64,000 nt of DNA from contig NZ_LR746496.1 of assembly GCF_902729405.1 (NCBI RefSeq), positions 2,728,001-2,792,000 of the forward strand, given 5' to 3'. A program made the translations under genes and the position numbers. The notes beneath the pieces were generated by a model, which was given only the letters and a program-made list of their open reading frames with translations, was not told where the DNA came from and did no database searches. How positions within the stretch are numbered: the first letter of the stretch is position 1; each line of letters begins with the position of its first letter. This document shows, in pieces, positions 84 through 51,384 of this stretch. The DNA comes from Acididesulfobacillus acetoxydans. Lineage in GTDB: Bacteria > Bacillota > Desulfitobacteriia > Desulfitobacteriales > Desulfitobacteriaceae.

Positions 84-485
84 TGACCCACACCTCCTTT
101 GGTTCCGCCCTTCCGTCGGTGTCCGGGACACCTCTGTACTATGGCTTCTGCTGACTCCTCACGACAAATCTTGTTTCAACCGGGCTTCTTACTCCGTTTC
201 CACCCGTCCGTGAGGCCTCCCACGGTAAGACGATTCACTTTCATTCCATGTCCCCGCAACATTTACGCTGACGTGTCCGTGTAGCTTTTGGGCTTCAACT
301 TGTATGGCAGTCTTACCCCACATTTCGCGCCTAATATTGTTCGTGTTCCTCGGGGCGGAACTTTGCCGCCGGCTTCCTTCAGATTCCATCTCGCAATGGA
401 CACCCTTGCCTTGAGCTAATGGTTGGTCGCTACATACCCCCATAACGGACTTTCACCGTCAAGTTAATCGTCATGCGTGGCGCAC
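1..485 (-). mobile_element. Group II intron, 5' part (cut by window edge)
   Basis: This stretch is the reverse complement of 34767-35251, the first 485 bases of the complete intron elsewhere in the window, with no difference that I can see. On the minus strand it begins with the canonical group II 5' motif GTGCG at 485-481, and the intron continues beyond base 1. The 5' exon ends with a rho-independent terminator, the known target type of bacterial class C introns. Only domain I and the start of the intron-encoded protein are visible, so intactness of this copy cannot be judged. Confidence 0.9.
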
Positions 486-516: not shown

Positions 517-557
517 GCAACGCAAGCAGGAAAACAAAGCCAACTGCTAAGCCGGCC

Positions 558-668
558 TTCCCTCTTCCCATCCAGACTGTAACTGTCGGCTCCGGAATCA
601 CACCGGATCTGCCAAAACGGCTCGCGGGCTTTACCGCCGGTAAGGATTTTCACCTATCCCCAGAGGAG
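558..668 (-). promoter_or_regulatory. FMN riboswitch (RFN element)
   Basis: The minus strand carries the conserved RFN core in order: GGGGATAGGTGAAAATCC, ACCGGCGGTAAAGCCCGCGA, GATCCGGTGTGATTCCGGA, GCCGACAGTTACAGTCTGGA and TGGGAAGAGG. The closing P1 stem is CCTCT (666-662) with AGAGG (565-561). The family senses FMN and normally controls riboflavin synthesis or uptake genes, so the target should lie to the left, outside the window. The intron at 1-485 now lies between this element and that gene. Confidence 0.95.
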
Positions 669-773
669 CAAAACACATATGCGGTTGATGGCTGAATGAT
701 TTGTGTTTGAAAGGTGTCGATGAAATCAGGCTCGTAACCGCTCGGTACTTGACTGAACATTCATGTCGGCTTT

Positions 774-34766: not shown

Positions 34767-36669
34767 GTGCGCCACGCATGACGATTAACTTGACGGTGAA
34801 AGTCCGTTATGGGGGTATGTAGCGACCAACCATTAGCTCAAGGCAAGGGTGTCCATTGCGAGATGGAATCTGAAGGAAGCCGGCGGCAAAGTTCCGCCCC
34901 GAGGAACACGAACAATATTAGGCGCGAAATGTGGGGTAAGACTGCCATACAAGTTGAAGCCCAAAAGCTACACGGACACGTCAGCGTAAATGTTGCGGGG
35001 ACATGGAATGAAAGTGAATCGTCTTACCGTGGGAGGCCTCACGGACGGGTGGAAACGGAGTAAGAAGCCCGGTTGAAACAAGATTTGTCGTGAGGAGTCA
35101 GCAGAAGCCATAGTACAGAGGTGTCCCGGACACCGACGGAAGGGCGGAACCAAAGGAGGTGTGGGTCAATGAAAGTTACCGAAGGTGGTAATTTAAAACA
35201 CAGACAACTTTGCTTTAAAGACTATCTGCAAAGGTCATCTGCGGAACAGAGAGAGTATGCAGAAGTGTGCGTGCCACCCAGGATGACCAAAACCGACAAC
35301 ACCAACACAGACGAGCAGACAGAGAAACTGCTAGAGGAAATTCTCAGCGCCGAGAACCTTAATCGAGCCTACTACAGAGTGAAGGGGAACAAAGGCGCGG
35401 GTGGAATCGACGGTATGCAGGTGGACGAACTTCTACCCTACCTGAAAGGACACAAGGATGAACTTTTGCAAGCCCTCTGGGACGGGAAATACCGTCCGAA
35501 ACCCGTACGGAGGGTAGAAATACCCAAAGAGAACGGGAAAATGAGAAAGCTGGGAATCCCTACCGTCGTGGACAGACTGATCCAACAGGCCATAACCCAG
35601 GTCCTTTCGCCAATCTTCGAAAGGCAATTCTCAGACAACAGCTATGGGTTCCGACCTCAACGAAGCGCTCACGACGCGCTAAGAGCATGTCAAAGGCATA
35701 TCACAGAAGGCTTTGTCTACGTCGTGGACATGGACTTGGAGAAATACTTTGACACGGTCAACCAAAGCAAACTCATCCAAATCCTCTCAGACACCATCAA
35801 AGATGGACGAGTCATATCCCTAATCCATAAATTCCTCAGAGCAGGGATTATGGTGGACGGACTATTTGAAGAAAGTCCGGAAGGCGTACCCCAAGGGGGG
35901 CCCCTTAGTCCCTTACTTGGAAACGTCATGCTAAACGTTTGTGACCACGAGCTAGAAAAGCGTGGGCATCGCTTCGTACGCTACGCGGATGACATGATGA
36001 TTTTCTGCAAAAGCGAGAAAGCGGCCCGGCGAACGCTAGACCATATTGTTCCTTATATCGAAGGGAAACTATTCCTCAGAGTCAATAAGGAGAAAACAAG
36101 CGTGGCACACGTGAGGAAAGTCAAGTATCTGGGATACGGCTTCTACATCCACAAAGGAAGAGGACGACTGAGAATCCACCCGAAAAGCATCCTGAAGCTA
36201 AAGGACAAGATCCGGAAAGTCACCGGACGGAGCAACGGGATGGGAATCGAGGAGAGAAAGGCAAAACTCAATTACATCATCCGAGGATGGACCAATTACT
36301 TTAAACTGGCAGACGCCAAAGCGTTACTCGGAAAGATGGACGAATGGCTACGAAGTCGAATTCGGATGGTCACATGGAAACGATGGAAGAGAGTACGCAC
36401 ACGATACGCGAACTTGCAGAAGCTTGGCATCAAGAAGGAGCAAGCATGGATGTGGGCAAACACAAGAAAGGGCTATTGGCGAGTAGCCCATAGCCACATT
36501 TTGACAATGTCCTTATCCAACAAACGCATCGAACGCGCAGGATACCCCAGTTTTAGTCAATGCTACTCTGCCAAATAACGTGTAAACTTTGGAGGCGCCG
36601 TATACCGAACGGTACGTACGGTGCTGTGGGAGGTCGGCTGGCCAATTAATGACCAGCCTCCTACCCGAT
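34767..36669 (+). mobile_element. Complete group II intron (class C type)
   Basis: The element starts with GTGCG and encodes a reverse transcriptase/maturase. After the ORF come a domain V-like hairpin with GCCGT and GTACGGTGC (about 36597-36630) and a domain VI-like stem GGAGGTCGGCTGG/CCAGCCTCC (about 36632-36660). It ends near 36669 in CCTACCCGAT. Insertion directly downstream of a terminator stem and lack of an endonuclease domain fit class C introns. The first 485 bases match the left-edge copy. The 3' boundary is set from the typical ending and could be off by a few bases. Confidence 0.9.
35169..36578 (+). CDS. ltrA: Group II intron reverse transcriptase/maturase
   Basis: The 469-residue protein has the reverse transcriptase blocks in order. 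GNKGAGGIDGMQVDEL is near 80, VVDMDLEKYFDTV near 190, PQGGPLSPLLGNVMLN near 245 and the catalytic RYADDMMIF near 270. The GIIM maturase domain (IRGWTNYF and onward) ends the protein. No HNH endonuclease domain is present, so mobility likely uses DNA replication forks or terminator-associated single strands. The start at 35169 is set by AAAGGAGGTG. The frame is intact. Confidence 0.95.
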   Translation: MKVTEGGNLKHRQLCFKDYLQRSSAEQREYAEVCVPPRMTKTDNTNTDEQTEKLLEEILSAENLNRAYYRVKGNKGAGGIDGMQVDELLPYLKGHKDELLQALWDGKYRPKPVRRVEIPKENGKMRKLGIPTVVDRLIQQAITQVLSPIFERQFSDNSYGFRPQRSAHDALRACQRHITEGFVYVVDMDLEKYFDTVNQSKLIQILSDTIKDGRVISLIHKFLRAGIMVDGLFEESPEGVPQGGPLSPLLGNVMLNVCDHELEKRGHRFVRYADDMMIFCKSEKAARRTLDHIVPYIEGKLFLRVNKEKTSVAHVRKVKYLGYGFYIHKGRGRLRIHPKSILKLKDKIRKVTGRSNGMGIEERKAKLNYIIRGWTNYFKLADAKALLGKMDEWLRSRIRMVTWKRWKRVRTRYANLQKLGIKKEQAWMWANTRKGYWRVAHSHILTMSLSNKRIERAGYPSFSQCYSAK

Positions 36670-50799: not shown

Positions 50800-50929
50800 G
50801 TCGGTCTGTGGACAGCGGAGCCGGTGCCTGCCGGCTCTGCTGCTTCGTTTCTTCCCGCGGGGAGATTAACGATCTCCGGAGAACGCTCCCGGCCGCAGTC
50901 GGGACTTTGTAACTGCGAGAGCTTTTTAA

Positions 50930-51320
50930 CATGGCTTGCGAGAAGTCCCCCGTCCTCTATAGGCGGGGGATGAATCGCTATATGGACATTCACAAAAAAG
51001 CGTATAGTATTTGGCAAATTGTTCTGGTATAAATTGTTCTGGTATAATATAATCAGTCGTATATAGAGTAGAGGGCTGATTTCTAGTGAGTGCTAAACTC
51101 ATCTTAGAGCGTGGACTTAGCGCCATGGCCCAAACATAGATTTTCTGTAGGGCGGGAACCGCCCGAAGTTACGCCTGTGGAAATTGCGTAAGACCTAATC
51201 CAGCACTCAGAAACCTTGAGTGCTGGACGAGGGCAACGATTGATGAAACAGGAAGCCAACGCCCAAGTGTTCGCCGAGAAGCCCCCGCTTCTTAGCGAAA
51301 CGTAAGCGGGGGTAGTTCAC
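50930..51320 (+). mobile_element. Decayed IS605-type element keeping both ends
   Basis: The left end has an imperfect palindrome with CCCCCG/CGGGGG (50947-50952 with 50964-50969). The right end has CCCCCGCTT/AAGCGGGGG (51282-51290 with 51304-51312) followed by TAGTTCAC, the usual right end of IS605/TnpB elements. Between them no tnpA and only a tnpB tail remain. Two tandem copies of AATTGTTCTGGTATA and a promoter-like TTGTTC-N18-TATAAT (51019-51048) point toward the right end. The left boundary, near TTTTTAAC at 50923-50930, is approximate. Confidence 0.78.
51077..51191 (+). pseudogene. tnpB C-terminal remnant
   Basis: The frame ending at TAA 51189-51191 reads VGREPPEVTPVEIA, the common C-terminus of TnpB proteins in Firmicutes. 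Just upstream in a different frame is SAKLILERGLSAMAQT, which matches the segment after the last catalytic Asp of TnpB. A frameshift and the loss of all upstream sequence make the gene non-functional. Confidence 0.8.
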
Positions 51321-51336
51321 TCTCTGAATAGGGTCT
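51147..51336 (+). ncRNA. Omega-RNA-like right end of the IS605-type element
   Basis: In TnpB elements the guide (omega) RNA overlaps the tnpB 3' end and runs to the right end, with the guide taken from flanking DNA. Here the hairpins GGGCGG/CCGCCC, CCAGCACTC/GAGTGCTGG (51200-51208 with 51218-51226) and the CCCCCGCTT stem, the string TGATGAAACAGGAAGCC and the end GTTCAC are all kept. The guide would start at 51321 (TCTCTGAATAGGGTCT). Expression is not shown; the call rests on the resemblance to the family. Confidence 0.55.
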
Positions 51337-51349
51337 GCCCGGATTTTCA

Positions 51350-51384
51350 GGCCGGCTTCTGTTTTGACAGGAGCCGGCCCTTTC
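51350..51384 (+). terminator. Terminator, probably of the fix operon
   Basis: GGCCGGCT (51350-51357) pairs with AGCCGGCC (51372-51379), with an inner TGT/ACA, and is followed by CTTTCGC. The insertion element lies between fixX and this terminator. Confidence 0.75.

What the first reader, a model, noticed from the sequence alone, without database searches (positions are those of the whole stretch)
50930..51336. IS605-type remnant lacking transposase but keeping an omega-RNA-like right end
tnpA and nearly all of tnpB are gone, but the tnpB tail, the guide-RNA scaffold hairpins and the right-end boundary are kept. A promoter-like sequence points toward them. An orphan omega RNA could be used in trans by TnpB from other copies, or could be exapted as a regulatory RNA.
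Basis: partly seen in the sequence, partly recalled or inferred. Interest (0 to 1): 0.68.

Follow-up and report, generated by a model that had tools for sequence, protein, structure and literature searches.

The report
Transposase-less IS605 mini-element with guide-RNA scaffold
A 391-base jumping element has lost both of its genes but kept its two ends and a complete guide-RNA scaffold; it has copied itself to several places in this bacterium, almost certainly using a transposase made elsewhere, but no complete partner nuclease for its RNA is left in this genome.

Summary
Window 50930-51320 (391 bp) is a complete, non-autonomous IS200/IS605 element: target motif TTTAA, left-end hairpin, extended -10 promoter, last 58 nt of tnpB, omegaRNA scaffold and right-end hairpin ending TTCAC. 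The scaffold is real: 95% of cells are paired over 21 related sequences, and 10 of 20 pairs change on both sides. It is not a dead remnant. Five loci in the genome share the same deletion junction, and four are complete and identical over the last 261 bp. A congeneric genome keeps one of these insertion sites empty, which fixes the boundaries. The likely mover is one intact TnpA (134 aa), encoded by a copy that has lost its own right end. No complete cognate TnpB exists in this genome: one copy is frameshifted, the others truncated. A relative (Desulfosporosinus MAG) has an intact tnpA-tnpB pair. So 'orphan omegaRNA on a mobile mini-element' is supported; 'used in trans by TnpB from other copies' is not supported here, though plausible in relatives. 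The window's guide has no other genomic match with two or fewer mismatches. The element fits PATEs; a Halanaerobium PATE also keeps the last 58 nt of tnpB plus the whole right end. A new member of a known kind.

The parts
50925..50929 (+). TTTAA target site / transposon-associated motif (TAM), outside the element
   Evidence: Precedes all copies with a left end. Removing the element at TTTAA| gives exactly the uninterrupted layout of the same-genus genome for copies 2868213 and 857857.
50930..51320 (+). Complete non-autonomous IS200/IS605 element (391 bp; PATE/MITE-like)
   Evidence: Boundaries from the copy alignment and empty sites; five loci with the same internal deletion.
50938..50978 (+). 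Left-end subterminal imperfect hairpin
   Evidence: DNA fold -13.9 kcal/mol, z -5.0, 0 of 200 shuffles as good; conserved in all left-end copies.
51016..51045 (+). Two copies of a 15-bp minisatellite AAATTGTTCTGGTAT; the number differs between element copies
   Evidence: Direct repeat; the array is expanded in copy 857857 and missing in copy 310206.
51040..51048 (+). Extended -10 promoter element TGGTATAAT (weak -35 TTGTTC at 51019-51024, spacing 18)
   Evidence: the same TGGTATAAT precedes tnpA in the tnpA-bearing copy. Promoter activity is inferred.
51081..51082 (.). Internal deletion junction joining the left-end leader to the tnpB tail
   Evidence: Compared with the tnpA+tnpB copy L018; identical in five loci.
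51082..51139 (+). Last 58 nt of tnpB (LVSAKLILERGLSAMAQT*); the deletion removes everything up to and including most of the codon of the last catalytic Asp
51145..51256 (+). omegaRNA (reRNA) scaffold core, 4 covarying helices, plus an extra 10-bp apical stem CCAGCACTCA/TGAGTGCTGG
   Evidence: Covariance model and pair counts.
51278..51318 (+). Right-end subterminal hairpin
   Evidence: DNA fold z -2.5; conserved in copies and relatives.
51316..51320 (+). TTCAC right-end tip / cleavage site
   Evidence: Copies diverge right after it; empty sites.
51321..51336 (+). Would-be guide (16 nt of flanking DNA, TCTCTGAATAGGGTCT)
   Evidence: Position follows from the reRNA architecture of ISDra2 (PMC8612924). 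No other genomic match with two or fewer mismatches over an 18-nt query; three 3-mismatch matches lack TTTAA.

Best explanation
Window 50930-51320 is a non-autonomous, internally deleted IS200/IS605 element (a PATE/MITE). A full tnpA-tnpB element lost about 1.5 kb between the tnpA promoter and the last 58 nt of tnpB. The result keeps the two hairpin ends that TnpA recognises and places the omegaRNA scaffold directly behind the old tnpA promoter. TnpA supplied in trans excises it as a single-stranded circle and inserts it 3' of TTTAA without target duplication; at present the likely source is the single intact 134-aa TnpA at 2344999-2345400. It is probably transcribed as an orphan omegaRNA that takes its guide from the flank at 51321 onward. 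In this genome that RNA has no complete cognate TnpB, so the scaffold is most likely a passive passenger kept since the recent deletion and amplification. Shown: anatomy, boundaries, copy number, shared junction, covarying scaffold, one intact TnpA gene, absence of a complete cognate TnpB. Inferred: transcription, TnpA activity in trans, passivity of the RNA.
For: Five loci with different flanks and the same deletion junction, four of them complete and identical over 261 bp. Empty sites in the same-genus genome at two copies, one of them of this deletion type, with exact boundaries; the window insertion is also absent there (intergenic spacer too short to hold it). Covariation of the scaffold. 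Intact Y1_Tnp protein at L018 (Pfam 8.6e-40) in a copy that has no right end. TnpB copies: frameshifted (L018), N-terminally truncated without the HTH domain (L019), fragments. Full tnpA-tnpB element with a 372-aa TnpB in a Desulfosporosinus MAG. Published PATEs with the same make-up (PMC7290912 section 3.8; PMC3119063).
Against: No expression or transposition data. The TnpA may be inactive, or may not recognise these ends: its own left-end hairpin is altered. The scaffold is 100% identical in four copies while the left end has a few changes, which could hint at constraint, but the numbers are far too small to tell.
Confidence: 0.8

Rival explanations
1. Cooperative orphan guide: the mini-element's omegaRNA is kept by selection because TnpB supplied in trans (from autonomous relatives, now or recently) uses it to cut empty donor sites and restore the mini-element, so it is an RNA-only homing element.
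For: The scaffold is complete and perfectly paired in the variable stem, where the tnpB-bearing copies L019/L024 carry mismatches. The deletion stops just before the scaffold and leaves a promoter in front of it. A Halanaerobium PATE keeps the same 58 nt of tnpB and the whole right end. In the Desulfosporosinus MAG an intact TnpB coexists with TnpB-less copies.
Against: No complete cognate TnpB in this genome. Copies are too young for a test of constraint. A 52-bp ends-only IS605 form without any scaffold is recorded at several sites in Haloquadratum (PMC3119063), so the RNA is probably not needed for spread.
Confidence: 0.12
2. Exapted regulatory RNA acting on the fixX/larE region or elsewhere.
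For: Promoter-like sequence pointing at a structured RNA; it lies between two genes on the same strand.
Against: Recent insertion, absent in the same-genus genome at this place; four complete copies with different flanks; the window guide has no other genomic match with two or fewer mismatches; larE has its own promoter-like site downstream of the insertion.
Confidence: 0.03
3. Plain decayed fragment, immobile since its deletion.
For: Most other matches in the genome are decayed fragments.
Against: Same junction at five loci with different flanks; empty site for one copy of the same type.
Confidence: 0.04

Closest known systems
PATE of Halanaerobium hydrogeniformans (PMC7290912, section 3.8)
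   Same: IS605 ends with no tnpA, the last 58 nt of tnpB and the whole right end; stated to be of a kind often moved in trans.
   Different: One copy of about 271 nt with only 28 nt of left end; here 391 bp, with a promoter-bearing left end, and the deletion form itself is amplified.
Homogeneous PATEs of Haloquadratum walsbyi (PMC3119063)
   Same: IS605-derived, near-terminal palindromes, no target duplication, amplified without own transposase.
   Different: Archaeal; the described core deletions were repeat-mediated and left fused ends only (down to 52 bp); here no junction repeat was seen and the omegaRNA region is kept.
ISDra2 TnpB reRNA/omegaRNA (PMC8612924; structures 8bf8, 8exa, 8h1j)
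   Same: Guide RNA from the tnpB 3' end plus right end, guide from the flank, TAM equals the insertion target (TTGAT there, TTTAA here); closest natural solved TnpB to the family's protein.
   Different: There the RNA is encoded with its own intact tnpB; here it is orphaned.
tnpA-tnpB element of Desulfosporosinus sp. MAG (L060, JAIMKP010000011.1)
   Same: Same family: TnpA 95% and TnpB 91% identical, same scaffold and right end.
   Different: Autonomous-looking, both genes intact; lacks the 20-nt extension of the apical stem.

Membership tests
IS200/IS605 non-autonomous element (PATE) | Subterminal imperfect palindromes, no terminal inverted repeats | tested here: met
   Hairpins 50938-50978 and 51278-51318.
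IS200/IS605 non-autonomous element (PATE) | Insertion 3' of a fixed short motif without target duplication | tested here: met
   TTTAA before copies; empty sites match TTTAA|flank with no duplication.
IS200/IS605 non-autonomous element (PATE) | Too short to encode a transposase; related to a full IS605-type element | tested here: met
   391 bp; tnpA-tnpB relatives L018 and L060.
IS200/IS605 non-autonomous element (PATE) | Spread of the deleted form itself | tested here: met
   Five loci with the same junction, four complete.
IS200/IS605 non-autonomous element (PATE) | Mobilisation in trans by a Y1 transposase | not testable with these tools
   An intact TnpA gene exists; activity is not testable in silico.
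TnpB omegaRNA (reRNA) | Structured RNA covering tnpB 3' end and right end, conserved by covariation | tested here: met
TnpB omegaRNA (reRNA) | Located beside a functional tnpB | tested here: not met
   Only 58 nt of tnpB are left; no complete cognate TnpB in the genome.
TnpB omegaRNA (reRNA) | Transcribed, processed and bound by TnpB | not testable with these tools
   Needs small-RNA sequencing or pull-down.
Exapted regulatory RNA | Conserved at one locus across related genomes, or a second genomic target | tested here: not met
   Absent from the congeneric genome at this place; no other match with two or fewer mismatches.

The most novel reading that the evidence does not exclude
The mini-element is an RNA-only partner in IS605 maintenance: selection keeps its promoter and omegaRNA scaffold so that TnpB made by another element (in relatives, or in this lineage until recently) can use its guide to cut emptied sites and recover the mini-element, a non-autonomous element that parasitises both the transposase and the guide-RNA nuclease.
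Probability: 0.12. Interest if true: 0.68.

Novelty: new member of a known kind. Interest (0 to 1): 0.36.

Why it matters
Short IS605 derivatives are usually described as ends only. This family keeps a complete, promoter-proximal guide-RNA gene and has spread, which makes it a compact natural test of whether TnpB guides can act in trans for a non-autonomous element. It also shows a genome where TnpA function and transposable ends have separated: the only intact transposase of the family sits in a copy without a right end, and no complete nuclease remains.

Tried and rejected
Rfam at gathering thresholds finds nothing at this place; Rfam coverage of this omegaRNA was not checked. The plasmid collection gave one weak 60-bp match. 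A first alignment of copies mixed strands and was redone. TTTAAC was first taken as the target motif; empty sites and the reading frame of the gene split by copy 2868213 show TTTAA. A pairing between the tnpB tail (GTGGACT) and the right-end tip (AGTTCAC) seen in the single-sequence fold is not kept in relatives by inspection and was dropped. The consensus promoter scan missed the likely promoter because its -35 is weak. The other TnpB genes of the genome were considered as partners: none of the eight loci checked has this scaffold beside it. Constraint on the scaffold among the young copies: 0 differences in 239 nt against at most 1 in 86 nt of left end, no statistical power. Guides of the other copies were not searched genome-wide.

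Full report
What is there. The window lies in a 4.52-Mb single-contig genome at 2728001-2792000. Its nearest named relatives in the searches are Desulfosporosinus-type Firmicutes. Between fixX (ends 50799) and a larE-like gene (starts 51495) there is a complete short IS200/IS605 element, 50930-51320, 391 bp, preceded by TTTAA. From left to right it has a left-end hairpin, a leader with two 15-bp repeats ending in an extended -10 box, a deletion junction at 51081/51082, the last 58 nt of tnpB, a structured omegaRNA region, and a right-end hairpin with tip TTCAC.

Not chance. The RNA fold of 51060-51330 has z = -5.5; the left-end DNA hairpin has z = -5.0 and the right-end z = -2.5. A covariance model of the core found hits in 8 of 83 genomes of the class. 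In the 21 distinct sequences of alignment A5, 95% of cells pair, 10 of 20 pairs change on both sides, and the covariation score is 0.50, against 0.07-0.14 when partners are slid. The alignment was fitted to the model, so it leans towards the structure, but the two-sided changes in helices 1 and 3 (G-C to C-G, A-U to U-A, G-C to A-U) are visible in the rows themselves.

Mobile, not a remnant. The same deletion junction occurs at five loci with different flanks: the window, 2793705, 2460238, 857857 and 310206. The first four have both ends and are identical over 261 bp; the fifth has lost its right end. The same-genus genome G001 has uninterrupted sequence at two insertion sites. The copy at 857857 (same type as the window) corresponds to TTTTTTGAAACCTC in G001, the same length as the joined TTTTTTAA|AACCTC. 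The tnpB-bearing copy at 2868213 corresponds to TTTAACCCC. These fix the boundaries and the target TTTAA. At the window locus, G001 has only a short spacer between the fixX end and the downstream hairpin, too short to hold the element.

The machinery. One intact TnpA of this family (134 aa, Y1_Tnp, 8.6e-40) lies at 2344999-2345400, in a copy whose right end is gone and whose tnpB is frameshifted before the third catalytic Asp. A second copy keeps both ends but has lost tnpA and the N-terminal part of TnpB, including the HTH domain. Two more tnpB fragments exist. So no complete cognate TnpB remains. The genome has other TnpB genes, but the model finds no such scaffold beside the eight loci checked. 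The likely ancestor is represented by L060 (Desulfosporosinus MAG), with 134-aa TnpA and 372-aa TnpB, all motifs present.

How it works. Shown by sequence: ends, target, copies, scaffold, one transposase gene. From established knowledge of IS200/IS605 (ISDra2, PMC8612924): TnpA recognises the end hairpins, cuts at the target motif, circularises and re-inserts a single strand without duplication; TnpB uses an RNA made of the tnpB 3' end, the right end and about 16 nt of flank, with the insertion motif as TAM. Inferred: the mini-element is moved in trans by TnpA, and its leader promoter makes an orphan omegaRNA whose guide (51321 onward) matches only its own emptied site. The window guide has no other genomic match with two or fewer mismatches over 18 nt; three matches with 3 mismatches lack TTTAA. 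Without TnpB this RNA should be idle.

Comparison. The element meets the features of a PATE that could be tested. A Halanaerobium PATE has the same make-up down to the last 58 nt of tnpB (PMC7290912). I record the coincidence but cannot say whether it reflects a functional boundary. Of 24 scaffold matches in the class, four lie beside a near-full-length open TnpB-like frame (L067, L072, L073, L075); in L073 the catalytic residues are replaced. The frameshifted 348-aa frame of L086 is not counted, and a few others lie at contig edges. TnpB-less scaffolds are therefore common. A Haloquadratum IS605 form that has lost everything but the ends is found at several sites (PMC3119063), which suggests that the RNA is not required for mobility.

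Verdict. A true observation, with the interpretation corrected from remnant to recently active mini-element. It is a new member of a known kind. The trans-guide idea is testable in relatives, but in this genome it lacks its protein partner.

Noticed in passing
L073 / L123 (G048:C128:1041-2174 -) and L124 (G048:C58:9956-11089 +): Two open TnpB-like genes (about 378 aa, 92% identical). In L073 all three RuvC catalytic residues are replaced (GLHLG, CVRGEEL, QRARNAA) while zinc-finger cysteines are kept, and an omegaRNA-core match lies downstream: candidate nuclease-dead, TldR-like RNA-guided repressors. Absent from the other 24 family genomes searched.
   Followed up: partly
L018 rc 58-110 (G000:C1 about 2345490-2345545): The left-end hairpin of the tnpA-bearing copy has become a perfect palindrome (GCGATTCATCCCCC...GGGGGATGAATCGC), as if one arm had been copied from the other.
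   Followed up: no
51016-51045 and the same place in other copies: A 15-bp minisatellite that repeats a -10-like TGGTATAA box varies in number between element copies (missing in copy 310206, two in the window, expanded in copy 857857).
   Followed up: partly
G000 2793705 and 310206 insertion sites: Two copies share the left flank TTCCGGACTTTTTAA although the rest of the flanks differ.
   Followed up: no
window 51349-51380: Strong stem GGCCGGCT...AGCCGGCC upstream of larE, with a compensatory change in the same-genus genome (GGTCGGCT...AGCCGACC): likely terminator or leader structure just after the would-be guide.
   Followed up: no
window 107-400 (-) and 34852-35145 (+): Two group II intron copies with equal scores on opposite strands.
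   Followed up: no
window 556-671 (-): FMN riboswitch.
   Followed up: no
G000:C1:2868213-2869366: The tnpB-bearing copy interrupts a gene for an Fe-S (CCGGGG-type) protein; the same-genus genome has the site uninterrupted.
   Followed up: partly
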